Source of the DNA: Chthonomonadaceae bacterium
GTDB lineage: Bacteria > Armatimonadota > Fimbriimonadia > Fimbriimonadales > Fimbriimonadaceae
DNA length: 64,000 bases
Direction of reading: 5' to 3'
Assembly: GCA_015709495.1 (NCBI GenBank)
Contig: CP054189.1
Span: 2,604,001-2,668,000 of the forward strand
Shown here: positions 7,786 through 54,633 of the stretch, piece after piece
Position numbering within the stretch: position 1 is the first letter of the stretch
Layout: the number at the start of each line of letters is the position of its first letter
Translations under genes and position numbers: made by a program
The notes under the pieces: model-generated
Told to the model about the DNA's origin: nothing
Database searches by the model: none
Seen by the model: only the letters and a program-made list of their open reading frames with translations

Positions 7786-7870
<85 letters not shown>

Positions 7871-8130: not shown

Positions 8131-9246
8131 CTACTTCCCGCTCTTCGCCCGGTTGCATGGCAGGCAACGCATCTGGCAGTTCTCAAAGACCGTCTTCCCG
8201 CCCTTGTGCCAAGGAACGATGTGGTCGGCTTCCATCGCGGAGATATCGAACGGCTTTCTGCAGTCCGGGCAAACGCCGCTTTGCTGCTCGTACACCTTCC
8301 GCTTCATCTTGTCGTCGAAGGTTCGCAGGTTCAGCGTCTTTTCGTTGCCGGTCAGCAGGTATTCGTAGATGCCCTTGACGCTCTGCACCTCGTCGTCGTC
8401 GATCAGCTCCTTGATGCGGGCTTCGAGCGTTGCCGCGTTCAGGTCTATTCTCTGGCCGTGGTCGCGATAGAACTTGCCCCAGTCCAACCCCTTCATTTCC
8501 TTTCGGGTGTTCGGGAACACCACCTGCACCCAGTTGATCACGCTCTGATAGTGTTGCCATAGCGCTTGGCCGTCGGCGTCGTGCTGGTGGAGTGCCATGT
8601 ACGCCTCGACCTTGTCGTCCTTGCCTCCGGTGATCCACTTCAACGCGGTCTCGAGAAGTCCCTGCCGGTCGACCGCATTCTCGCCACTCGTGTCGACGTA
8701 TCTATCTCCAACCTGGTACGCCGGGCAGTTCCGACGCGAGAACCATCGCTTTGCATCTGCCAGCCAAGTTCCGGTGTAGATCGCATTGCGCATCTCTTGG
8801 TCAGTTAGCTTTAGTCCTGCAATGTTGATGATCCTGAACCAGTCGAGCCGTTCTTGGTCGGTACCCTCGCAAAAATAGATCCGGAGTTCGTAGTTCAGGA
8901 TTTGCTCCTGCCGCTCTTTCGTGAGGTTAGCGAAGATGTGCGGCGAGCCCTCAATGTCAATAAAGAACTCGTTGTTCACGTATTGGCAGAGGCTGATCGT
9001 GCGCTGCTGCCCGTCCATCAGTTCGTAGCCCTCGCCCGCTACGACCCAGTACATCGTGTTGAGCGGGAAGCCCTTGCGCACGGTGTGGATGACCTCGTTG
9101 CGCTGCTTGTCCTTGTAGATGAACTCGCGCTGGTAGGCGGGGCGGATGTTCAGCTTGCCGCCATAGCCGCGCACGCCCTCTTCCGCCTTGTCGACGTAGC
9201 CCTCGACCAGCTCGCGGACGGTGATGTTCTTGAGGTCGATCTTCAT
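8131..9246 (-). CDS. DUF262 domain protein with C-terminal HNH nuclease
   Basis: 371 aa. The N-terminal DUF262 (ParB/GmrS-like) domain shows RPAYQREFIYKDKQRNEVI and the nucleotide-site motif LMDGQQRTISL near residues 75-85. The C-terminal HNH nuclease motif is built from CPDCRKPFD, ADHIVPWHKGG and MRCLPCNRAK: two CxxC pairs binding zinc and the catalytic His of DHIVPWH. This combination resembles GmrSD/BrxU-type enzymes, which cleave modified phage DNA in a nucleotide-dependent way, but single-protein DUF262-HNH members are mostly uncharacterised. It is the last gene of the minus-strand accessory block, 21 bases downstream of the membrane protein at 9268-10065. The defence role is inferred from domains and neighbours. 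Confidence 0.88.
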   Translation of the reverse strand: MKIDLKNITVRELVEGYVDKAEEGVRGYGGKLNIRPAYQREFIYKDKQRNEVIHTVRKGFPLNTMYWVVAGEGYELMDGQQRTISLCQYVNNEFFIDIEGSPHIFANLTKERQEQILNYELRIYFCEGTDQERLDWFRIINIAGLKLTDQEMRNAIYTGTWLADAKRWFSRRNCPAYQVGDRYVDTSGENAVDRQGLLETALKWITGGKDDKVEAYMALHQHDADGQALWQHYQSVINWVQVVFPNTRKEMKGLDWGKFYRDHGQRIDLNAATLEARIKELIDDDEVQSVKGIYEYLLTGNEKTLNLRTFDDKMKRKVYEQQSGVCPDCRKPFDISAMEADHIVPWHKGGKTVFENCQMRCLPCNRAKSGK

Positions 9247-9267
9247 TGTTGCAACCAGGTGCCGAGG

Positions 9268-10065
9268 TCAATCTTCAGAGTCTGGCGAATCGGAGATTCG
9301 ATTCGGTCCAAGTATGAGCACCCGACGCGAACGGAGTCGCTTCTCCTTCGCGTCTTCGTCAGGCTCTTGCTCAATGATCGTCCCAATCACGCGGACAGGT
9401 CTCTTGTTCTCCCGCGGCCCGTCCTTAGCGAAGAACTCAAGCGTTGACTGTTCCAACACGTCACCGAAGTCTGGATTCCATGCACTGGCTGGATTGAGTC
9501 CCACCTGTAGCCTCATATTGAGTTCATAGTGACCAAGATATCTCAACTGAGCCTGCAAGTCCGTGCACATGCCAATCATGACGGCGATGCTCTGCTCAGT
9601 AAGCGGCCCGTTCCGATGCACATAGAAAGCCTTGAGCCAGACCGTCAGCGCCTCTGCCGCATCGTCGTAGTCCGAGGGAATGCTCCCGGGCGGTCCGCCA
9701 TATTCCTCAAGCGCCCCGGTTAGATCGTCGATGTATTCTTCAGTCTTGCCGAGGAGCTCGTTGATCGCCTCCGCCTTGTCAAAAGTCTCAAGGTCCGCTC
9801 CGAAGGCTCCATAGACCTTGTTTAGCTGAGTCCAAAGCTTCGAGAGAGCGACAACCGCCTTGTGAAGACTTTGGATTCGCAGCGCACTGTATGCGTCAAG
9901 TGCGTTTGCTTGTCGAGATATCGCGTCCTTCCGGTCGGCCCTGCTCAAGGTCCATCGCGTAACTAGGACAACGGTGCCGAAGCCTAGAACGATCTTGATG
10001 ATGTCGAGAAGCAATTGCCCCCACACCGGAAGATCCTTAGCTGAACCCGAAAGCCAATCCAACAC
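9268..10065 (-). CDS. Hypothetical membrane-anchored helical protein
   Basis: 265 aa from a GTG start. One transmembrane helix lies near the N-terminus (about residues 16-38, from WGQLLLDIIKIVLGF). A long, largely helical cytoplasmic region follows (residues 45-200), and the charged tail is rich in Arg, Asp and Glu. I recognise no family. A single N-terminal membrane anchor plus cytosolic helical domain next to a DUF262 nuclease is a layout seen for membrane-acting defence effectors, but that is only an analogy. It lies 21 bases upstream of the DUF262-HNH gene, so the two are probably one transcription unit. Confidence 0.7.
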   Translation of the reverse strand: MLDWLSGSAKDLPVWGQLLLDIIKIVLGFGTVVLVTRWTLSRADRKDAISRQANALDAYSALRIQSLHKAVVALSKLWTQLNKVYGAFGADLETFDKAEAINELLGKTEEYIDDLTGALEEYGGPPGSIPSDYDDAAEALTVWLKAFYVHRNGPLTEQSIAVMIGMCTDLQAQLRYLGHYELNMRLQVGLNPASAWNPDFGDVLEQSTLEFFAKDGPRENKRPVRVIGTIIEQEPDEDAKEKRLRSRRVLILGPNRISDSPDSED

Positions 10066-10081
10066 AGAAGAACACTTCCCC

Positions 10082-10747
10082 CTACCCCGGCACCGTCGCG
10101 CTGACGGTCTCGCTCAAAGGGCCCGGCTCGTTGCGCGTGCTCATCCAGCGCCCGATGAAGTGCGCCGTCTGGTTCGCCTCGCTCCCATCGAACACCGCCA
10201 CGTAGGGCGTGCGCGTGTCGGTCGCCAGGTAGTGGCACTCCGAAAGGTCGGTGGGGGGCGGGCCGCCCAGCTTCACCCAAATCTCGCAGCCGTTCACCCC
10301 CGCCGGCTTGGCGCGGTTGGTCGGCGTCCCCTCGTCCGCAAAGTTGATCGTGATGCGCAAGCGTTGCGAGGTGTCGGCCTGCAGGACCGGCCTCGTGGTC
10401 GGCGCGCCGACCGGCGTCGGAATCCGGTCCGGCACCGTGATCCCCAGCGCGGCCCGCTCGGAATCGTCCACCGAAGCGCTGGATTGCAGTCTGCCGGTGA
10501 GCCGCCGGACGATCACCTCGTAGGCGGCGCGGGAGGCGTCCTTGGCCTGGCGGGCGGTCTGGGCGGCGGCCTGGGCGGCGACGTGCGCGGGATACTTGGT
10601 CTGCCAATCGGTCCTTTGCGCGTTCAGGGCCACCACGTCGACGTCGAGCCCGGTGAGGCCGAGGGCGACGAGGTTCGCGTTCAGGTACGTCGCGTACTGC
10701 GTCTGCCAGGTGTCGAACTGGTCGTCAGGGTCGGGGATGTAGCTCAT
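10082..10747 (-). CDS. Conserved hypothetical protein, alanine-rich helix plus Fn3-like C-terminus
   Basis: 221 aa. It begins with a helical region (DDQFDTWQTQYATYLNANL), an Ala/Gln-rich helix (residues 55-75), then a beta-rich C-terminal part with CEIWVKLGGPPP, CHYLATDTRTPY and RWMSTRNEPGPLSETVSATV. This C-terminal part resembles a fibronectin-III-like strand pattern. The overall pattern is one I recall from scattered hypothetical proteins in environmental bacteria, without an assigned function. No signal peptide. It starts 23 bases after the 21-bp tandem repeat array at 10771-10917, which therefore sits in its promoter or leader. The gap to the membrane-protein gene is 16 bases. Confidence 0.75.
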   Translation of the reverse strand: MSYIPDPDDQFDTWQTQYATYLNANLVALGLTGLDVDVVALNAQRTDWQTKYPAHVAAQAAAQTARQAKDASRAAYEVIVRRLTGRLQSSASVDDSERAALGITVPDRIPTPVGAPTTRPVLQADTSQRLRITINFADEGTPTNRAKPAGVNGCEIWVKLGGPPPTDLSECHYLATDTRTPYVAVFDGSEANQTAHFIGRWMSTRNEPGPLSETVSATVPG

Positions 10748-10770
10748 GGGTTTAGTTTACTGATTCCCCC

Positions 10771-10917
10771 GTTTGGGGGATTCTCCTGCGCGGTTGGGGG
10801 AGTGAGTTTCCCGTCTGGGGGCGTGAGTTCCCCATCTGGGGGACTGAGTTTCCCGGCTGGGGGAATGAATCCCCCGGATGAGTGGCCTGTCCCCCCGGAT
10901 GGGGGAGCGAGTCTTTC
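10771..10917. repeat. Tandem repeat, seven 21-bp units
   Basis: Seven contiguous, imperfect 21-bp units (starts at 10771, 10792, 10813, 10834, 10855, 10876, 10897). The common core is a run TGGGGG followed by a G/C/A-TGAG step and a TTCCC run. Each unit is partly self-complementary (GGGGG against CCC), so the array could form a row of small hairpins. A weaker eighth unit may precede it at 10750-10770. It lies just upstream of the gene at 10082-10747. There are no spacers, so it is not a CRISPR array. Confidence 0.9.
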
Positions 10918-10935
10918 TGGCTGACGGTATCCACA

Positions 10936-11958
10936 TCATGCCTCAAATGCCTTGCCCAGCCGAAAAGGGGCCTTGGTCCAATGCGTTTCGACGGCGGATA
11001 AGTGCTGCGGATGAGGGTAAACGGCATATTCCCTCCGGTCGGCCTGTCGAACACAAAACACCAATCCAGAAATGTAGTCCGGCTTCTCGACGAAATAGAT
11101 TCCGCTCCCATTGTGGCCAGAGTAGTTCGCCGTCATAGTGTTCTGGTCGATACCCCAGTGATGCTGGCCGTACAAGGCTTGATAGGCGTCCTCTTCATCA
11201 TACAGAGGGCTGTCCGTAACATCGACGAGCACAAAATTGAACTGCGTGTCGGATGGTGCGAATCCGAAGCTTCTTTTGGCTAGCTTGATCCGTTTCCAGA
11301 AGGCGGCGCGCAGGTCATCCGTGTTGACAGCGACGACATCACCATAGTCTCCTGCAGCACCCCACGTAACTCCGGGGCCGAACCCCGGCTTCTTTCGTTC
11401 CATGAAATCAATCAGAATCCCTTTGCCCGCGTTGGGGGGAGTCCACTCCACAGGTGTACCTAGGGCAAAGCCAGGCTGGTTGGCTTCGAACCACTGCTTG
11501 AATGCCGCAAAGTCCGCTTGATTGAGGTCTACGACGGAACGAAACTCCAGCAAGAGCCCGGGTTCTCGCTTTGGAAACGTCGCCTCCACCCAAGCCATGA
11601 AATCCCGAATCCACATCTCGTTGTACATGTTGAGGACCGCCTTGCACTGAAAGTCAGCGCGGATAGCGTTGTGCTCAAACGTGATGTCGCAAGGCACCTT
11701 AGCCGCGCCATCCTGACGGTCGCTCGTGATTGTGGCAGCTGGCTCCATCGAGGCCAGTTGGTCTGCAGCTTGAAGCTCGACTAGTAGTCCGCCGACAATG
11801 TCTTGCTGGCCCATCCTCTTGACAAAGAAGTTGACTAGCTGTCGCATTCCTTTGGCCTCCACGCGCATCAGCATATCGTTCAGCCAAGTTAGACCAGGTT
11901 CCTTCTTGAGGCCCTTGTATGCAAGGTGGAGGTCTCTTACGATTTCGGCTTTGTACAT
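10936..11958 (-). CDS. Probable restriction endonuclease partner of the adjacent methyltransferase
   Basis: 340 aa with no family I can name. It begins immediately after the methyltransferase stop (TAG at 11961-11959, ATG at 11958), so the two are one unit. A possible PD-(D/E)xK nuclease core is visible around residues 88-103: CDITFEHN, then RADFQCK. The Asp pair plus QxK would fit the QxK variant of the fold. The C-terminal half is beta-rich with several aromatic residues and no recognisable motif. Gene pairing with an EcoRI-type methyltransferase and this motif make a cognate nuclease the best reading. The function is inferred, not demonstrated. Confidence 0.6.
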   Translation of the reverse strand: MYKAEIVRDLHLAYKGLKKEPGLTWLNDMLMRVEAKGMRQLVNFFVKRMGQQDIVGGLLVELQAADQLASMEPAATITSDRQDGAAKVPCDITFEHNAIRADFQCKAVLNMYNEMWIRDFMAWVEATFPKREPGLLLEFRSVVDLNQADFAAFKQWFEANQPGFALGTPVEWTPPNAGKGILIDFMERKKPGFGPGVTWGAAGDYGDVVAVNTDDLRAAFWKRIKLAKRSFGFAPSDTQFNFVLVDVTDSPLYDEEDAYQALYGQHHWGIDQNTMTANYSGHNGSGIYFVEKPDYISGLVFCVRQADRREYAVYPHPQHLSAVETHWTKAPFRLGKAFEA

Positions 11959-13156
11959 CTACTTCCTCTTGATGAAAACGCGCTGATAAACCTTCCTGCC
12001 GTCGAGGACGGGAGTTGCGTTCATGTCGTAAGTGCCCGGCTTCCCGAACAATCTGCGGTAGGCCTCCTGGCACTCCTTCGTTGTGTAGACGCGACTCTTG
12101 AGGCCGTACAGATCCTCGTTCTCGCTTCGCCCCAAAACTTCGAATTGGGCCGGGTTGTGCCTGTCCAGGAAGGTGATCGGCACTCCCATGACCCCGTCGT
12201 AGTCCTCCGGGATGTCGGCGACCTTGCCCACCTCGATCGCATCGTAGTTGGCGTAGGTCGGGTACGCCTCGGGCGAGTACTTCTTGAAGAGCGGGATGTC
12301 CTGGTGGCGCTCCTCGAAGTCCATGTTCGTGAACCAGCCGACGCCAAAGGAACTTCACGAGGCCGGTCTTCTCGTCATAGACTCCCGAAGCGAAGTCGCG
12401 CACGTTCTCCTTCGGAATCTCGAAGTAGGCGTTGCCGGCATTGAAGCCGACGCCGAGCCAGAGCTTGTTCTCCTTGATCAGCTTGAAGACCTCTTTGTAG
12501 GTGATCGCGTTCTTCGAGCCGATGATCAGGAACTGCTTGCCGTGCTCCACGAGCTGGGCGACGTACTCGCGGAACAGGGAGAACGGCGGGTTGGTGACGA
12601 CGATGTCGGCCGCCTTGAGAATCTCCACGCACTCGGGGCTGCGGAAATCGCCCCCCTGCTTCAAGGGGCGGCTCACATTCTTATCGTGCCGGAGCAGGTG
12701 CTCGACGTCCTCCAGGTTGATCGCGCCGTCCTGGTTGAGGTCGGGGACCTCGTTGATCTCGACCAGGTGAGCCCCGTCCCAACCACGCGGCTTGCCCCTC
12801 ACCCCCTGCCCCCTCTCCCCGCCATTCATCGGGGCGAGGGGGTCCAGATACGGCTTCAGCCCCTCCATCACTATCAGCGGAAGCTGTCCGCCGACGATGG
12901 GGGAGCCGGCGTAGCTGGTGGCGATGAGCTTCTTCAGGACGAGGGTGTTGAAGTTGGCGGCGAAGTACTTGAAGAAGTTGCTCTCGAAGGGGTCGTCGCA
13001 GTTGCAGAGGACGACCTTGCCCTTGAAGCGGTCCTTGTAATGCTTGAGCTCGTTGGCGATGTCGGCGAGCTGGGTGTAGAACTCGTCCTGCTTGGCCGCC
13101 TTGGCGCTGGAGAGGGTGCGATTGCCGGAGGAGGTAGACATTCGCCTATCGCTCAT
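11959..13156 (-). CDS. EcoRI-family adenine-specific DNA methyltransferase, interrupted by one frameshift
   Basis: About 398 aa if the frame is restored. It would methylate adenine N6 in a specific site with S-adenosylmethionine. Visible features are KQDEFYTQLADIANEL at the start, VVLCNCDDPFESNFFKYF, the catalytic VVTNPPFSLF (residues 187-195), FLIIGSKNAITYKEVF, then GVGWFTNMDF and the late GVMGVPITFLD. The reading frame breaks at about 12349: upstream is in one frame, and from FGVGWFTN onward it is in another, consistent with one extra base. An in-frame palindromic insert lies at residues 105-122. Start: ATG at 13156 with TATAAT seven bases before it; ATG at 13141 is an alternative. A neighbouring nuclease candidate follows directly. 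Confidence 0.85.
12791..12845. repeat. REP-like palindromic element inside the methyltransferase gene
   Basis: A C-rich stretch (CCCCTCACCCCCTG type) runs into a hairpin: arm 12809-12820 and arm 12831-12842, 11 pairs with one mismatch and a 10-base loop. This type of C-rich palindrome is common as a dispersed intergenic repeat. Here it is in frame and encodes a Gly/Arg/Pro-rich insert (PLAPMNGGERGQGVRGKP) that does not look like part of the methyltransferase fold. Confidence 0.7.
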
Positions 13157-26146: not shown

Positions 26147-27790
26147 TCACGCCGCCTCCGCCTCCTCTTCCGTCCAGTAGTGCGCGTAGAGGTCCTGCAT
26201 CCGAGACGAGTTGAGCAGGTCGCGCAGGGACTCGACGACAACCGGATCGAACTGGCTTCCTGCCCCTCGACTGAATTCGGACATTACTGTATGGCGGTCC
26301 ATGACGCCACGGTACGGCCTACGCGAGCTCATCGCGTCGAAGGCGTCCGCCACACACACGATCCTGAGCGAAAGCGGCAGTTCACCGCCTTTGAGACCGT
26401 CAGGATAGCCGCTACCATCGAGCTTCTCGTGGTGGTTGCGGATGATCATCAGCACACCTTCGGAAAGCGCGAGCGGCCTACAAATCTCGTACCCGATAAC
26501 AGGGTGCGTCTTCATGATCTCGAACTCATCGTCGGTGAGCCTGCCGCGCTTGTTCAGAATCGCGTCGGGCACGCCGATCTTCCCAATGTCGTGGAGTACG
26601 GTCCCAACCCTTAGTTCTTCCAATGCCTCGGGTCCGAATCCGAGCCGCTCGGCGATGAGCAGAGAGACCTCGCAGACCCTTTGGGAGTGGCCCCTCGTGT
26701 ACTCGTCCCGAGCTTCAAGGGCGGTCGCGAGACTCTGCATCGTCCGAACGAAAGTTGAATGTTGCCTCTCGTCCGACCTCGCGTTCGAAACCGCCACCGC
26801 GACGAGCGCGGCGAAGGTCCGGAGGAGCTCCATGTCGTCGGCTGTGAACGAGTCGGCTTTGTGGGTGCTCAACAACGTCATGACGCCCAGCACTTGCTCT
26901 TCCGCCGAGCGGCCCGGCGTCGACGACCCGCGCGTGAGCAAAGGAACCGAAATCGCTGCCGTCACCCCTTCGGTAACGCCGTCGAACCCGCTCTGGTCTT
27001 CGTTCTTGTCAGTGACGGAGACGGGCTGGCCCATCTTGGCGACGTACCCGGAAAGGCCAAACCCAAAATCGAGTTCTTGCGGGAAATCGAACTCGCCGTG
27101 GGGAGAATACGCGACCTCGGTGATGAGGGGACCTTTGGACTCATCGTCGCTGAGCATGATGTAGCCGCAGCTCGCTCCCGCCTCGACGACCGCGGCCTTG
27201 ACGGTGAGCTCCATCGTAGCGCGCAGATCTTGACTCTCCGCAAAGGCGAGCCCTACCCGCTGGACCGCATGAAGGCGCTGGTCCCTGCGAGAGAGGTTCA
27301 CTTCGCGCCGTTGCGCCTTCGAGAGACCGGCGGCAAACGCCCCAGCGACGACGACGGCCCCAAAGGACATCGCCAAGGAGACCCAGGTGTGGTTGGCCAG
27401 CATGTTGAACGCAAGGCAAGCAGCGGCCGTCCAGCCCGAAAGCGAAAAGATCCTCCGCAAGTCATGGTGGACCAACGAATCGGCGATGATGAGCGGGATG
27501 CTTAGAAGCCACAAGTTGTGAGAGGCGACGCTCGGTACGAGCAAGGTCGCCATGATGGCGAGCGCATCCAAATACGCTACTGAGTTTCGAGCCGACGCGA
27601 TGAACTTGAACCGGGACTCAATCGACTCCGATGCGACAAAAAGGATGTTTGAGATTACCGCTGCGCCTATGGCGAACAACCAAACCGACGACCGAAGCTC
27701 CTCGATCGTGATCAACCCGGCGACGCCAATGAGGCACCACCGGACCAACGCGGCCCCACGAATCCAATTCAAATCCTTCATGCCTCTCAT
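26147..27790 (-). CDS. Membrane GAF-HD-GYP protein, putative c-di-GMP phosphodiesterase
   Basis: 547 aa. The N-terminal half of the first 180 residues is hydrophobic with about five or six helices. A GAF domain follows (LAFAESQDLRATMELTV to VAVSNAR). The C-terminal HD-GYP domain has RGHSQRVCEVSLLIAERLG, HDIGKIGVPD (HD pair), NHHEKLDGSGYPDGL (GYP) and ADAFDAMSSRRPYR. This is the signature of c-di-GMP-specific phosphodiesterases. The start overlaps the PilX-like stop by ATGA (27790-27787), fixing it. Being embedded in the pilus operon ahead of pilM, it most likely tunes pilus assembly. Confidence 0.92.
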   Translation of the reverse strand: MRGMKDLNWIRGAALVRWCLIGVAGLITIEELRSSVWLFAIGAAVISNILFVASESIESRFKFIASARNSVAYLDALAIMATLLVPSVASHNLWLLSIPLIIADSLVHHDLRRIFSLSGWTAAACLAFNMLANHTWVSLAMSFGAVVVAGAFAAGLSKAQRREVNLSRRDQRLHAVQRVGLAFAESQDLRATMELTVKAAVVEAGASCGYIMLSDDESKGPLITEVAYSPHGEFDFPQELDFGFGLSGYVAKMGQPVSVTDKNEDQSGFDGVTEGVTAAISVPLLTRGSSTPGRSAEEQVLGVMTLLSTHKADSFTADDMELLRTFAALVAVAVSNARSDERQHSTFVRTMQSLATALEARDEYTRGHSQRVCEVSLLIAERLGFGPEALEELRVGTVLHDIGKIGVPDAILNKRGRLTDDEFEIMKTHPVIGYEICRPLALSEGVLMIIRNHHEKLDGSGYPDGLKGGELPLSLRIVCVADAFDAMSSRRPYRGVMDRHTVMSEFSRGAGSQFDPVVVESLRDLLNSSRMQDLYAHYWTEEEAEAA

Positions 27791-28830
27791 GGCCAAAAAC
27801 CGGGAAGTTTGTACTTGGGTCCCTCTTCGGGATTGTCGGCAATGAATCTGTCAAACCCGATGGTAAATGGATCTGTAACGTCGAGCTTGTCGTAGGTTAC
27901 AGCCACCCCCGGCTCGAGCTTGACGGACAGGCCGCCGTCAATCACCAGCTTCCCGGATGAGCAAAGAACGCCCACGATGTTCGAGGTCCACCCCTTGGCG
28001 CGAATCTCTCCTCCCGCAAGGAACACAACCCGACTGTTCTTATCCGCATACGATGTGTCAGCATCGAACTGAATGTGGCCCTTAGCCGCGATGGTCCCCT
28101 TGCCCGCAATCGCCCCCGACATGTTAAAATCCCCGTTGACGTAAACGACTTCATAGTCCTTCGCAAACGTAAAGCCAACATAACTACCTCCAGAAATCGT
28201 CCGGTCGGCGACATCTTTGTATAGGCTGATGTCAAGGGGTGGAATACCCCGCTCCTGTCGGTTCGTTTGGATTCCAGAAGTCGCAGTCACCCCTGGATTG
28301 GAAACGGTGGAGGTCGACCTGAGCGTACCGTTGACTGATAACCATCCAGTACCAAGGATTTTTCCTTCATTCCAAAGGTCGCACTTATTGAGCGCGGAAC
28401 CAATCGTGATGGTCTCGGTTACGTTTAGGTCCTTCATCGTCGTCAGCCCGTACGCAAAAGGACTCTCAAGGTACGGGCGGGGCACGACCTTCCGGCCGTA
28501 CTCGATCTTTCCGTTGACCAGGCCGGTACCGCTAACCAGAATCGAGTCTTTGACCGACCCGGAGTTGTCGGTCATCGTCACGTTCCACGTGCTACCGTTT
28601 ACGGCCACAGTAATCGAAATCGCGCTCAGTTCTCGTTCGCCTGCTGCGAACTCGGAGATCACCTTGTTGACGACGGCGTCGAAGGAAGCGTTGACTATGT
28701 GATTCCGCTCCGAGAGCCGCTGTCTTTGAACTTCTTGTGTCACGCTTCCCACCGTAGCGAGAATCACCGTTGTTGCGGCGATGCTCGTCAACAAAGTGAA
28801 CAGGAGCGCGCTGCCTCGTCGTTTCTTCAT
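27787..28830 (-). CDS. PilX-like exported pilus-associated protein
   Basis: 347 aa. A basic N-terminus (MKKRRGSALLFTLLT) leads into one hydrophobic helix, as in PilX or GspK minor pilins but without the strict FTLVE signature. The long remainder is beta-rich with NGDFNMSGAIAGKGTIAAKGHIQFDAD and VVFLAGGEIRAKG, the repeated Gly-rich turns of polymer-forming or DUF7305-like domains. The ATG at 28830 is chosen: GGAGG lies 5 bases before it and ATGA overlaps the upstream stop. A role at the pilus tip or in priming is inferred from position. Confidence 0.7.
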   Translation of the reverse strand: MKKRRGSALLFTLLTSIAATTVILATVGSVTQEVQRQRLSERNHIVNASFDAVVNKVISEFAAGERELSAISITVAVNGSTWNVTMTDNSGSVKDSILVSGTGLVNGKIEYGRKVVPRPYLESPFAYGLTTMKDLNVTETITIGSALNKCDLWNEGKILGTGWLSVNGTLRSTSTVSNPGVTATSGIQTNRQERGIPPLDISLYKDVADRTISGGSYVGFTFAKDYEVVYVNGDFNMSGAIAGKGTIAAKGHIQFDADTSYADKNSRVVFLAGGEIRAKGWTSNIVGVLCSSGKLVIDGGLSVKLEPGVAVTYDKLDVTDPFTIGFDRFIADNPEEGPKYKLPGFWP

Positions 28831-29501
28831 CCGTTCCTCCAACACACAACGCGGGTGACGCTATAAGCGTAGCTCTCGTTACTCGTCGCATCGGACACCG
28901 TGCGGTTTCGTCCTGCTGCCGACGAAGCGGAGATCGTGTAAGTCACGGTCTTGGCGGCGGTGTCGACTTTGAAAACCAGCTCCGTCAGTAGGTGAAACTT
29001 GTTGTTCGAGGAACCGTAGTAGCGGCTCCAATTCAAGTCGAGGTCGCTAGCCGTGGGAACCGAATCATCGGTTCGGACGGCCTTGTTCGGGTCGATCCCG
29101 ACAAGGGCGGTCTTGGAGAGGACTCCGCCGAGCCTGCCCAAGACGTACCAGACACGCTTTCCGGCCGAGTAGGATGCCTTGCGGTAAGTCGTGACCGAAT
29201 CCAGATCGTACGCGTCGGCGTTTCCGTCGCCTTGCCGGTCGTACACCGTCGCAGGCATCGTACACTTGAGATATACATATTTGCCCGAGGGGACAAGTTC
29301 GCAATTGATCGCCGACTGGACGGTCGCTTCGATGTCTTGCGCGACGGCGGTTGCTTGCCGAACGGCCTCTGCGCGAGCAAAGGCGTGACCCATCCTGACG
29401 ACTACGAAGCCGTACACGCCGACGCTTGTGGCCACAACAATGCCGGTCAGCGCCGAGGCAAGCGCCACTTCGACCAACGTCACGCCTCTTCTGCGCTTCA
29501 T
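28827..29501 (-). CDS. Prepilin-type minor pseudopilin (PilW/GspJ-like)
   Basis: 224 aa from ATG at 29501. Leader KRRRG then VTLVEVALASALTGIVVATSVG: Glu5 is present and the usual Phe at +1 is replaced by Val. The remainder (TYRKASYSAGKRVWYVLGRLGG, TELVFKVDTAAKTVTY) is beta-rich, as in GspJ/PilW. It overlaps its neighbours by ATGA at both ends. The 25 residues of open frame ahead of the ATG are Arg-rich and lie in the upstream gene, so they are not used. Confidence 0.85.
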   Translation of the reverse strand: MKRRRGVTLVEVALASALTGIVVATSVGVYGFVVVRMGHAFARAEAVRQATAVAQDIEATVQSAINCELVPSGKYVYLKCTMPATVYDRQGDGNADAYDLDSVTTYRKASYSAGKRVWYVLGRLGGVLSKTALVGIDPNKAVRTDDSVPTASDLDLNWSRYYGSSNNKFHLLTELVFKVDTAAKTVTYTISASSAAGRNRTVSDATSNESYAYSVTRVVCWRNG

Positions 29502-29968
29502 TCCCCTTGCCTCACCTGAGCTGTGATTGTCAGGGACTTGGCTCCTGCGGAAGCGTAGGTTGCTCCCCCTTCCCACGTTCCTGTGACCACCACCTGGAAC
29601 AGTTTCGGCGCGCCGGACACCGAAGTGATAGTTCGAGTGACAGTGACCTTGTCCGCGATCGGGATCGACGACATGACGAGCGCATCGGTCGCGAGGGATA
29701 CCCCGGAGGCATTGGCTAGCTTGCCCCCGTTGGTGTAGGTGACGGTGCGAGTCGAAGGAGTCACACCCCCCATCTTCGCAGCGGCACGGGCGGCTTCGAG
29801 TTCGTTTTTCATGGCCGCGTGCACAACCGCTCGCTTTCGGGCGATTTCAGCCCGCTTCGCTGTGTACACCGTCGAGCCGATAAGACCCGAGGCCGCTGCG
29901 CCGAGAAATACGGCGGCGACCAGCAATTCTGCCAGCGTCGTTCCCCTGCGACGATTCCGCCCACTCAC
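29498..29968 (-). CDS. Prepilin-type minor pseudopilin (GspI/PilV-like), first gene of the pilus operon
   Basis: 156 aa from a GTG start (AGGA three bases upstream). Prepilin leader RRRG then TTLAELLVAAVFLGAAASGLIG: Glu5 is present, and Thr replaces Phe at the processing site. Mature residues carry many small amino acids and a C-terminal beta segment (PKLFQVVVTGTWEGG). Its order before the PilW-like and PilX-like genes and its length match GspI/PilV. It starts the continuous minus-strand run down to pilC. Three direct repeats lie just upstream. Confidence 0.82.
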   Translation of the reverse strand: MSGRNRRRGTTLAELLVAAVFLGAAASGLIGSTVYTAKRAEIARKRAVVHAAMKNELEAARAAAKMGGVTPSTRTVTYTNGGKLANASGVSLATDALVMSSIPIADKVTVTRTITSVSGAPKLFQVVVTGTWEGGATYASAGAKSLTITAQVRQGE

Positions 29969-29972
29969 ATTC

Positions 29973-30045
29973 CTATATCGGCAGATTCCCGATGAGCCTT
30001 ATCGGTAACTCGCTCGGTATTTCGCTTTTGGAGGCTTATCGGCAA
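29973..30045. repeat. Three direct repeats upstream of the pilus operon
   Basis: Copies of a TATCGG core occur at 29976-29981, 30000-30005 and 30037-30042, each preceded by CT or CTT; the second and third are extended to GCTTATCGG-like forms followed by YAA. They could be sites for a regulator of the pilus operon. The rest of 29969-30148 contains no gene. Confidence 0.4.
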
Positions 30046-30148
30046 TTCAACGGGGATCGGCTTCGCCCTCGTCGTCGAGCCTGAGGGTGGAGCGGTCGAA
30101 CGTCCCGCGCACGAGGCCTCCGACGTTCTTGGGTGCCAAACTGGGGCG

Positions 30149-51085: not shown

Positions 51086-53041
51086 CTAAGATGTCTCGAC
51101 GGCGCCTTCAAAAAAAGTCGCTTTCTCGTTCAGCGCGAGCGCCGCGGATATCCACTCGGAATGCGACCATGCCAAGGGGCTGACGCTGAGCGGCTCGCCG
51201 GTGTAGGGGTGAACCTGCTCGGGCAAGACCCCGGTGGGGGCGGCGACCTTCTGCGCCCACTTCATCAGATCGATCGCACTTGCGAGGTGATCGTCCGCGT
51301 CGAACAGCAGGTGGCACCTTGCAAGCCAGAGCGTGCAGATCACCCAAGGGTTGCCGGGAAGGTCGTGGCTGACCCGGAAGTAGTAGTCATCCTCGTACCG
51401 AGCGAGTCCGCCGACCTCGGTTCGAACCCAGAGCCGCTCTTCGATGGCTTGGAGAGTCGAATGCGCGAATTCGTGATGGGGAGCCACCAGCCCCACCAGA
51501 AGCAGCCACAGCGCCGATGCGTCGACCGTGGGGTCTGGCTTTCCGTCAGGGTCGAGCCGCCGAAGAAAACAGCCGCCGGAGGCGTCGAACATCCCCTGCA
51601 AAACCGCCGCGCGGATTTCGCTCGCCCCGGCCGCCCACCTCTCCGAGGACGCATCGCCCAACCGAAGCGCCCACGCGGAGGCTCGGTCGAGCGCCCAGAA
51701 AACGGTCGCGCATGTAAACGCATGGACTCCCAACCGCTCTTCCCAGAGATCGTAGCTGGGCAAGGGGAATCCGGTCTTGGGCGACCGAAAGCCGCAGAGA
51801 AATTCCGCTAGCGGCTTGGCGAGGGTTTGGAAGACCTCGAACTCCCGTTCGTCACCGGCTCGCCGTTCAAACCGGTCACACAGGCTCACCAGCGCGAGGG
51901 CAGTTTGATCGAGTTGCAGCGGTACGCCGTGCGGAAAAGTCTCGTTCCAAGGGTGCCATGACGCGCCCCACCTTCCGTCGGGGCGGTACTTCTGAAACAG
52001 GCCCGGCCGATCGGGCTGTACCACCGAAGCGAGGAACCGCACCCACCGCTCCGAGGGATCGCCCCAGCCCAGCGCGTCCAACGCCATGACCGTGAGCGAG
52101 CCGTCTCTGGGCCAGCTGTAGCTGTAATGCGCCCTCGCGGTCCTCATGATGTCGGAGTCGTTGGCCGCGATCACCGCACCCCCGGCATCGAGGTGCGTCC
52201 TCAGAACCTGAAGGCTTTGCAGCGTCGCCAGCCTCCACTCCTGAGGCAATGCGTGGATTTGGGCGAAGGCGGCGAGGTTGAGGTTTTCGGAAGCCGATCG
52301 GGCTTGGGCAAGCACCTCCAGGAGCGACGCCCCGGTGAGGCTTGCCGTTCTGCTCCGAACGTCCTCCAGGTCAGTTCCTGCAACGATCCACAACTCAAGC
52401 TCGGCGCTCTCGTTCGGGCCCAAACGAACGGCAAGCGATAAGGTGGAATCCACCGATCCTTGGCTGATGGGGTGGCCCGAAAGGTGGCCGTCTTCCGCGT
52501 CGCGCCAGGTGCCTTCGAACCCGCCGAAGTCCTTGATGCCAGTGGCGAACTCAAAGAGGCCGCCGTTGGACGATCGCCCGCCAAAAAGGAACCAGTGCGC
52601 GCCTTTGTAGTGAATCAACGCCTCGGAGACCGGATCGAAGAGGGCCGTGTCGCCGATTTCAGTTCCCGCGATGCGCAGGTCGTTGTGCTGAAAGAGGCGA
52701 ACCTCGCGCTCCTGCCCTGCCCGATTGAGGATCTTCAAGCAGCGGACGAACACCGGCTCAGCGGCGTGAACCGCCTCGCGCACCTCGACCGCGATTCGAA
52801 GTTCGCTCGACTCCAAGTGGGTGAGGCCACAGAGAGCGCTCGGATCGTACCGCTGGCGAACCTCCCAGCCTTCGTCGCCGACCCAACTCAGATTCTCCTC
52901 GCACCAAAACCCCCACCGGATGGCGTGGCCTGAGAGGTGGTTCGGGAGCCCGCACTGCGGGAAGTAAAGGTCGCGGATGCGGTGGCCCGCATCCAGGCAG
53001 AGGTGGAAGATTCCGTTTCCGAAGACGAGCGGGCGAGGCAT
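51086..53041 (-). CDS. Glycoside hydrolase family 15 (glucoamylase/trehalase-like)
   Basis: 651 aa. An N-terminal beta-sandwich domain (FGNGIFHLCLDAGHRIRDLYFP) is followed by the (alpha/alpha)6 GH15 barrel. YSWPRDGSLTVMALDALG carries the substrate-binding Arg-Asp, YDLWEERLGVHAFTC contains the general acid region, and LLPEQVHPYTGEPLSVSPLAWSHSEW carries the general base Glu. No signal peptide, so cytoplasmic, as are bacterial GH15 enzymes acting on imported or storage glucans. Products would be glucose, feeding a sugar kinase such as the ROK protein nearby, but there is no direct operon link. Confidence 0.92.
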   Translation of the reverse strand: MPRPLVFGNGIFHLCLDAGHRIRDLYFPQCGLPNHLSGHAIRWGFWCEENLSWVGDEGWEVRQRYDPSALCGLTHLESSELRIAVEVREAVHAAEPVFVRCLKILNRAGQEREVRLFQHNDLRIAGTEIGDTALFDPVSEALIHYKGAHWFLFGGRSSNGGLFEFATGIKDFGGFEGTWRDAEDGHLSGHPISQGSVDSTLSLAVRLGPNESAELELWIVAGTDLEDVRSRTASLTGASLLEVLAQARSASENLNLAAFAQIHALPQEWRLATLQSLQVLRTHLDAGGAVIAANDSDIMRTARAHYSYSWPRDGSLTVMALDALGWGDPSERWVRFLASVVQPDRPGLFQKYRPDGRWGASWHPWNETFPHGVPLQLDQTALALVSLCDRFERRAGDEREFEVFQTLAKPLAEFLCGFRSPKTGFPLPSYDLWEERLGVHAFTCATVFWALDRASAWALRLGDASSERWAAGASEIRAAVLQGMFDASGGCFLRRLDPDGKPDPTVDASALWLLLVGLVAPHHEFAHSTLQAIEERLWVRTEVGGLARYEDDYYFRVSHDLPGNPWVICTLWLARCHLLFDADDHLASAIDLMKWAQKVAAPTGVLPEQVHPYTGEPLSVSPLAWSHSEWISAALALNEKATFFEGAVETS

Positions 53042-53190
53042 AAAGCGTGGCTCCCAGTATGGCAGCGGCCGCAGCGTGGGTTTTGCGCCGGGCAGGCTGG
53101 CGGGGCCAAGAAATGTCGCTATTCCCTGGTAATTGTCTCGGTACCGGTCACAGATTCGGCGCGATTCGACAAGTACCTAATAGACTGATC

Positions 53191-53422
53191 TGCTTGTCGC
53201 CCCTCCATGCGAACGGATGGGGAATGATTGATGGGAAAGGAGCGCCTAGGAGGCTTCCGGTTCGGGCGAACCGAGGAAGCCGCGCTGTCCCGTCCCTTTG
53301 CATGGGGCGGCTGAAGTAGGTCGTTCGGCGTCGACTTCGGGTCCTCACGGCCCCCTTCGACGTCACAACTCAACTCACACCCGTATGATGGCCCCGACGA
53401 CCAAGTTGTCGGGGCGCCTTTT
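53191..53422 (+). ncRNA. Structured RNA ending in an intrinsic terminator (candidate)
   Basis: The intergenic stretch 53042-53445 is gene-free but richly structured. In order on the plus strand: a hairpin at 53203-53222; a bulged 13-bp stem at 53252-53281 (GGCTTC..GAAGCC with inner CGGTTCG/CGAACCG); a stem at 53290-53310; an 8-bp stem at 53327-53364; then a terminator at 53391-53415 (11 bp, loop CAA) followed by TTTT at 53419-53422. A promoter TTCGGC-17-TAATAG would start near 53191. It could be an independent RNA or a leader of the NamZ gene. No known Rfam class was recognised by eye. Confidence 0.5.
53391..53422 (+). terminator. Intrinsic terminator before NamZ gene
   Basis: GCCCCGACGAC (53391-53401) pairs with GTTGTCGGGGC (53405-53415; one G-U), then GCC-TTTT. 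Strongest canonical terminator in the window. It ends whatever is transcribed from 53191, 24 bases before the NamZ start codon. Confidence 0.85.
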
Positions 53423-53445
53423 CCGTAAGCGGATATCATGGAGGC

Positions 53446-54633
53446 ATGGTATTTGCGAGCGTTATGTTGTCAGCGTTGTCGATAGGTCAGGCGCCTGCCG
53501 TGCTTAGCGGCGTCGACGTGCTCGAACGGTCGGGTTTTCAGGCCCTCATCGGCCGTAACGTCGCGCTCATCACCAACCACACCGGGAAGACCGCGGACGG
53601 CCGGTCGACCGTGGATGTTCTCTTCGAGGCGCTGGGGGGCCGACTCAAGGCTCTGTTCGCGCCCGAGCACGGCATCCGAGGGGACCTGGACGAGCGCATC
53701 CCCGACGGAAAGGACCCCCGCACCGGGTTGCCTGTTTACTCCCTCTATAACCCTGGGACGGGCGAGCAGAGGTACCAACCCACCTCGGCGCAGCTCGAAG
53801 GCGTGGATACGCTCGTGTTCGACATTCAAGACATCGGGGCGAGGTTCTACACGTACGTAGGGACCCTTGGATATGCCATGAAAGCCGCCGCTTCGCGCGG
53901 GATTCGGGTGGTCGTTCTCGATCGGCCGAACCCTATCGGTGGACAAAAGGTCGAGGGCCCTGTGGCCGACAAGGAGCGCTTGGGGCTCACGGCCTTCCAC
54001 CCGATCCCAGTCCGGCACGGCATGACCGCCGGGGAACTTGCAGGGCTGTTCAAGGATGAACTGAAGCTGAACGTCGAGATCCAGGTGATCTGGTGCGAGG
54101 GTTGGCGAAGGGATATGTGGTGGGACCAAACGGGTCTTACTTGGGTCAACCCTTCTCCCAACATGAGATCGGTCACGCAGGCCACGCTTTATCCCGGCAT
54201 TTGCTTGGTCGAAGCGACCAACGTATCGGTGGGCCGGGGAACCGACACGCCTTTCGAGTGGGTAGGCGCGCCTTGGCTCGACGGCCCGAAAATCGCGAAT
54301 GCGCTCAACGCTCGCAAGATTCCGGGCGTTCGCTTCTATCCCGTGCGGTTTCGACCTAATGCAAGCAAGCACGAGGGCGTGGACTGCGGCGGCGTGGCCT
54401 TCCTGGTGACGGAGCGAGACAAGCTCGATGCGGTTCGCGTGGGGTGTGAACTTGCCCACGCGCTGAAGACCGCGCACCCGGAATGGGACACCTCGCGCCT
54501 CGTTAATTTGCTCCAAAACAGCCAAGCGGCGGCCACCGTGTTGGAATCAGGGTACGAGGCCGCCTACCGCCAATGGAAGGCTGGGCTGGACGAATTCGTC
54601 CAACGCCGCAAGAAATACCTTCATTACCGGTGA
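53446..54633 (+). CDS. namZ: DUF1343 protein, NamZ-like exo-beta-N-acetylmuramidase (GH171)
   Basis: 395 aa. A short hydrophobic N-terminus (VFASVMLSALSIGQ) may be a signal. The DUF1343 core follows: GRNVALITNHTGKT, LKALFAPEHGIRGDL, FDIQDIGARFYTYVGTL, VVLDRPNPIGG, PIPVRHGMTAGELA, WVNPSPNMRSVTQATLYPGICLVEATNVSVGRGTDTPFEW. Characterised NamZ from Bacillus removes terminal MurNAc from peptidoglycan fragments, so a cell-wall recycling role is expected. A TATCAT box six bases before the start and GGAGG immediately upstream are both present. Confidence 0.9.
   Translation: MVFASVMLSALSIGQAPAVLSGVDVLERSGFQALIGRNVALITNHTGKTADGRSTVDVLFEALGGRLKALFAPEHGIRGDLDERIPDGKDPRTGLPVYSLYNPGTGEQRYQPTSAQLEGVDTLVFDIQDIGARFYTYVGTLGYAMKAAASRGIRVVVLDRPNPIGGQKVEGPVADKERLGLTAFHPIPVRHGMTAGELAGLFKDELKLNVEIQVIWCEGWRRDMWWDQTGLTWVNPSPNMRSVTQATLYPGICLVEATNVSVGRGTDTPFEWVGAPWLDGPKIANALNARKIPGVRFYPVRFRPNASKHEGVDCGGVAFLVTERDKLDAVRVGCELAHALKTAHPEWDTSRLVNLLQNSQAAATVLESGYEAAYRQWKAGLDEFVQRRKKYLHYR

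What the first reader, a model, noticed from the sequence alone, without database searches (positions are those of the whole stretch)
53191..53422. Highly structured RNA element before NamZ
Four successive hairpins are followed by a strong intrinsic terminator, all inside a 400-base gene-free gap, with promoter-like TTCGGC-17-TAATAG at the 5' end. NamZ has its own -10-like TATCAT after the terminator. This favours an independent RNA, but riboswitch or attenuator control of NamZ is also possible.
Basis: partly seen in the sequence, partly recalled or inferred. Interest (0 to 1): 0.6.

Follow-up and report, generated by a model that had tools for sequence, protein, structure and literature searches.

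The report
Candidate orphan small RNA beside NamZ
Between two outward-facing genes of a Fimbriimonadales bacterium lies a 230-base stretch with its own likely start signal, a long folded rod, another hairpin and a stop signal, so it is probably a small stand-alone regulatory RNA of an ordinary kind, found so far in only one species and of unknown target.

Summary
The structured element is there, but parts of its anatomy need correcting. The gap (53042-53445) lies between a divergent GH15 gene (-) and NamZ (+). Hairpin 4 and a compact 11-bp terminator ending in TTTT (53391-53422) follow. The proposed promoter TTCGGC-17-TAATAG is weak. A -10 matrix trained on this genome picks TAGACT (53181-53186) and TATCAT (53434-53439) as the two best + strand sites in the gap. 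TATCAT lies 12 nt before the NamZ ATG, where this genome's leaderless-gene signal peaks, so NamZ probably has its own promoter and no 5' leader. No upstream gene reads toward the terminator. Best reading: an independent intergenic sRNA of about 230 nt. Attenuator or riboswitch control of NamZ is less likely. There is no Rfam match. The only homologue found is in one same-species genome (98.3% identical; 4 changes, none compensatory). It is absent from the other 111 genomes of the order searched, so covariation cannot be tested. Fold z-scores are modest for this genome (-2.8 whole, -3.7 rod). An ordinary, plausible, unproven orphan sRNA.

The parts
53181..53186 (+). predicted -10 box TAGACT of the small RNA (start expected near 53192-53193)
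   Evidence: Best + strand -10 match in the gap, 8.21 bits; sites this good occur at 0.16 per kb; identical in G101
53190..53319 (+). long imperfect rod with a 5' asymmetric internal loop at about 53222-53240; its tip is hairpin 2 (53252-53281)
   Evidence: MFE -65.6 kcal/mol, z -3.74; inverted repeat arms; stem extends to 53187-53322 when more 5' sequence is folded
53327..53364 (+). hairpin 4
   Evidence: -18.4 kcal/mol; outer pairs at probability near 1.0
53365..53390 (+). largely unpaired A/C-rich linker, possible seed region
   Evidence: Unpaired in the centroid; identical in G101
53391..53422 (+). intrinsic terminator: 11-bp stem, 3-nt loop, TTTT
   Evidence: -21.4 kcal/mol, z -4.88; same class as terminators found at 3' ends of genes of this genome
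53434..53439 (+). predicted -10 box TATCAT of a leaderless NamZ mRNA
   Evidence: 8.20 bits, 12 nt before the ATG; TANNNT is enriched at -12/-13 before gene starts
53446..54633 (+). NamZ, exo-beta-N-acetylmuramidase
   Evidence: Pfam NamZ_N 6.8e-78 and NamZ_C 9.4e-42
51086..53041 (-). divergent neighbour, glycoside hydrolase family 15 protein
   Evidence: Pfam Glyco_hydro_15 1.1e-27

Best explanation
An independent, non-coding, intergenic small RNA of about 230 nt. RNA polymerase starts near 53192 from the TAGACT -10 box, copies the rod, hairpin 4 and an A/C-rich linker, and stops at the terminator at 53391-53422. NamZ is then started afresh, without a 5' leader, from TATCAT. Shown by sequence: the gap, the inverted repeat, the terminator and the two -10 matches. 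Inferred: that the RNA is made, where it starts, and that it acts. The likeliest action is as a trans-acting, base-pairing regulator through its unpaired stretches (53222-53240 and 53365-53390), possibly with the Hfq that this genome encodes. Its targets are unknown.
For: The terminator is on the + strand in a gap whose left neighbour is divergent. It belongs to the compact, about -21 kcal/mol class otherwise seen at 3' ends of genes in 364 kb of this genome, and it was the only one found at -20 kcal/mol or below in a gap after an opposite-strand gene and before a same-strand gene. The -10 matrix gives exactly two outstanding + strand sites, one before the rod and one before NamZ, each about 0.16 per kb. 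The leaderless signal TANNNT at -12/-13 is enriched in this genome (22 and 26 against about 9) and matches the published bacterial leaderless signal, TANNNT about 12 bp upstream (PMC3160421). Rod z is -3.74. Substitutions against the same-species genome are 4/232, with no indels, against 41/567 at four-fold sites of the two flanking genes (Fisher p = 0.001). No coding signal. Hfq is present.
Against: No transcript data. One homologue only; four changes, two breaking a pair and none compensatory. The low divergence is no lower than in other gaps of this genome (Fisher p = 0.19). Structure is moderate by the genome's standard. The rod stem continues upstream into the -10 box, which an RNA starting at 53192 would not need. 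There is no recognisable -35 hexamer.
Confidence: 0.55

Rival explanations
1. The element is the 5' leader of NamZ: a transcription attenuator or unknown riboswitch in which a signal decides between termination at 53422 and read-through into NamZ.
For: Structure plus terminator 23 bases before a same-strand gene is the classic layout; a possible alternative pairing of 53314-53324 with the 5' arm of the terminator exists.
Against: NamZ has a leaderless-type promoter after the terminator. If NamZ were read from a leader, its GGAGG would lie 1 nt from the ATG, too close to act as a ribosome site. The antiterminator pairing is 82% over 11 nt and far weaker than the -21 kcal/mol terminator stem. 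Upstream sequences of NamZ orthologues in relatives show no comparable element (read by eye). No Rfam riboswitch match.
Confidence: 0.15
2. No functional RNA: an old palindromic or MITE-like inverted repeat decayed in a gap of recent rearrangement, next to a stray terminator.
For: The rod is essentially a 136-bp imperfect inverted repeat that runs into the -10 box. The next-best matches to its covariance model lie in G/C-rich palindromic repeat regions of G018, G005 and G011. GH15 and NamZ were not adjacent in any relative whose locus was inspected, so the junction is lineage-specific.
Against: Single copy in its own genome; no target-site duplication seen by eye; the terminator is strand-specific and compact; two good -10 sites flank the element.
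Confidence: 0.22
3. A strongly diverged 6S RNA (a rod that binds RNA polymerase) of this family.
For: Rod with an internal loop, own promoter and terminator; RF00013 finds 6S in other families of the order but in none of the 37 genomes searched of this family.
Against: No 6S match in the element even at E <= 10. The 9-sequence order-level 6S model does not hit G000. The 19:2 asymmetric loop differs from the 6S central bubble. The element is not conserved even in the same genus, unlike a housekeeping RNA.
Confidence: 0.04

Closest known systems
Trans-encoded intergenic sRNAs with intrinsic terminators (Hfq-associated class, as in enterobacteria; from general knowledge)
   Same: Free-standing unit in a gap, own -10 box, stem-loops, unpaired stretches, terminal hairpin plus U run; Hfq encoded in the genome
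   Different: No sequence or structure homologue; expression, Hfq binding and targets untested; rod larger than usual; only four U in the tail
Transcription attenuators and riboswitches
   Same: Structured RNA and terminator just before a same-strand gene
   Different: The gene seems to have its own leaderless promoter after the terminator; no Rfam class matches
6S RNA (RF00013)
   Same: Rod-like fold with an internal loop
   Different: No covariance-model match, not conserved, wrong loop shape
Dispersed palindromic (REP/MITE-like) repeats of related genomes
   Same: Inverted-repeat stems with CCCC..TGCGAA..GGGG-like arms
   Different: Single copy here, no second copy in its own genome

Membership tests
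Independent intergenic sRNA | Lies in a gap, no coding signal | tested here: met
   Coding scores negative, no protein-family match
Independent intergenic sRNA | Own promoter | tested here: inconclusive
   Good -10 TAGACT at 53181, no clear -35; no start-site data
Independent intergenic sRNA | Own intrinsic terminator | tested here: met
   53391-53422, -21.4 kcal/mol, TTTT
Independent intergenic sRNA | Conserved structure with covariation | tested here: inconclusive
   One homologue only, no compensatory change
Independent intergenic sRNA | Discrete transcript | not testable with these tools
   No RNA data available
6S RNA (RF00013) | Match to the covariance model | tested here: not met
   No hit at E <= 10 in the gap; order-level model R1 gives no hit in G000
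6S RNA (RF00013) | Conservation in close relatives | tested here: not met
   Found only in the same species
Known riboswitch or leader in Rfam | Match to an Rfam family | tested here: not met
   Only a tRNA elsewhere in the window at gathering score; only a chance mir-596 match at E <= 10
NamZ attenuator or riboswitch | Continuous transcript from the element into NamZ | not testable with these tools
   Leaderless-type -10 after the terminator argues against it
Mobile palindromic repeat (REP/MITE) | Multiple copies in the genome | tested here: not met
   Single copy by DNA and by model search

The most novel reading that the evidence does not exclude
A lineage-specific rod-shaped RNA has taken over the 6S role (binding RNA polymerase) in a Fimbriimonadales family that has no detectable 6S RNA.
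Probability: 0.03. Interest if true: 0.6.

Novelty: new member of a known kind. Interest (0 to 1): 0.22.

Why it matters
If expressed, it would be a candidate regulatory RNA in Armatimonadota; one literature search of the held library, with narrow terms, turned up no work on small RNAs in this phylum. It would also be a simple case of an orphan sRNA arising in a lineage-specific gene junction. It does not challenge known mechanisms.

Tried and rejected
Rfam at gathering score and at E <= 10: nothing relevant. DNA search of 101 relatives, of the genus, and of the 113 genomes of the order: only the same-species copy; the 29-nt hit in G008 is inside a coding gene. Covariance model of the rod over 85 family genomes: only G000 and G101 are real; the G018, G005 and G011 hits lie in palindromic repeat regions. 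6S identity: RF00013 and an order-specific model R1 give nothing in G000 (the one RF00013 hit in G000, at E = 9.3, lies elsewhere and is noise). Phage, plasmid and viral-contig searches: no match. Small ORF 53231-53314 (MGKERLGGF...): its three differences in G101 all change the amino acid, so no coding constraint (read). Antisense or target pairing among 293 nearby gene starts: the internal loop pairs with the GH15 start region at rank 4 of 293, not significant after allowing for the choices made; NamZ ranks 199 (loop) and 80 (linker). An IGR structure scan with dense sampling timed out and was repeated with coarser sampling.

Full report
Place. The window is part of a 2.9-Mb single-contig genome, G000. 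The gap 53042-53445 separates a divergent GH15 protein (51086-53041, -) from NamZ (53446-54633, +), both confirmed by Pfam. ORFs that cross the gap have negative coding scores, and the 106-aa minus-strand ORF matches no family.

Observation. The four local hairpins and the terminator can all be drawn. Hairpins 1 and 3, however, form an inverted repeat (53199-53221 with 53289-53311), and the favoured fold is one rod closed near 53190-53319, with hairpin 2 at the tip and a 19-nt internal loop on the 5' side. Its energy is -65.6 kcal/mol, z -3.74. Separate hairpins would sum to about -41. Folding a longer stretch extends the rod stem to 53187-53322 and makes its base pairs near-certain. Hairpin 4 (53327-53364), an unpaired A/C-rich linker and the terminator (53391-53422, -21.4 kcal/mol, z -4.88) follow. 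Whole-element z is -2.78 on the + strand and -2.48 on the other. About 2.5% of 230-nt windows in the 64 kb are as extreme, and on a fixed grid this gap is not among the 15 most structured of 67 gaps. The structure is real but not remarkable by itself.

Promoters. In 364 kb of the same genome, TANNNT is enriched 12-13 nt before start codons (22 and 26 against about 9 per position). This is the published signature of leaderless bacterial genes (PMC3160421). A -10 matrix from 45 such sites, NamZ left out, gives two outstanding + strand sites in the gap: TAGACT at 53181-53186 (8.21 bits) and TATCAT at 53434-53439 (8.20 bits), each at a density of about 0.16 per kb; a third, TATGAT at 53384, is weaker. 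TATCAT sits exactly 12 nt before the NamZ ATG, so NamZ is predicted to be leaderless. The sites used to train the matrix were chosen for carrying TANNNT, so the matrix is partly circular; the positional peak is not.

Terminator. The same 364 kb hold only 15 hairpin-TTTT sites at -20 kcal/mol or below, and 8 of them lie after a same-strand gene in gaps that make up 11% of the sequence. The site at 53419 is the only one found in a gap after an opposite-strand gene and before a same-strand gene. Its shape, an 11-bp stem with a short loop, matches the compact terminators at convergent gene ends.

Relatives. Only one other genome, of the same species (G101), carries the element. It is 228/232 identical with no indels; the changes are at 53246, 53265, 53276 and 53357. 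Two are unpaired and two break one pair each; none is compensatory. The rate (1.7%) is lower than at four-fold sites of the flanking genes (41/567, p = 0.001) but not lower than in other gaps (167/4912, p = 0.19). No homologue is found by DNA in the rest of the 113 genomes of the order, in the same-genus genome G001, or by covariance model over the 85 family genomes. The weak model hits lie in G/C-rich palindromic repeat regions of other genomes; here the element is single-copy. Phage, plasmid and viral collections give nothing.

Identity. No Rfam family matches. 6S was considered because RF00013 finds 6S in other families of the order but in none of 37 genomes of this family. The element fails every 6S test made. 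A NamZ attenuator is disfavoured by the leaderless-type NamZ promoter and by the absence of a comparable element before NamZ orthologues, whose upstream sequences were read by eye only. A decayed palindromic repeat remains possible, the more so because the inverted repeat runs into the -10 box.

Conclusion. The best reading is a species-restricted independent sRNA of about 230 nt (0.55), possibly Hfq-linked since the genome encodes Hfq. Transcription, ends, partners and targets are all inferred. It is a new member of an ordinary kind; interest is low until a transcript is seen.

Noticed in passing
G000-G036 against G061-G084: RF00013 (6S RNA) gives no match at E <= 1 in any of 37 genomes of this family, while 9 of 24 genomes of other families of the order match (6 over the cut-off). 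The family may have lost 6S or hold a much diverged one.
   Followed up: partly
364 kb around the window: Clear leaderless-gene signal: TANNNT at -12/-13 before start codons, with about 46 of 293 called genes carrying it.
   Followed up: partly
9226-12464 of the window: Not alignable to the same-species genome in the stretch compared; lies just right of a tRNA gene (7786-7867). Looks like a variable or integrated segment.
   Followed up: no
27787-30148 of the window: Genes and gap 17-25% divergent from the same-species genome against 1-4% around them, with a piece at 27863-28434 that does not align: a recombination or diversification hot spot.
   Followed up: no
L091 (G018), L092 (G005), L093 (G011): G/C-rich palindromic repeats such as CTCCCCTCCCCCTGCGAAGCGAGGGGGAGGGG, in several copies in G018 and G011 loci, in intergenic DNA of related genomes.
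   Followed up: partly
53384-53389 of the window: A third -10-like site, TATGAT, directly before the terminator stem (7.13 bits; GTCACA-16-TATGAT).
   Followed up: no
53222-53241 with the GH15 start region (about 53007-53066): The rod's internal loop has its fourth-best duplex among 293 gene starts with the neighbouring GH15 start region; weak, not significant after allowing for the choices made.
   Followed up: no
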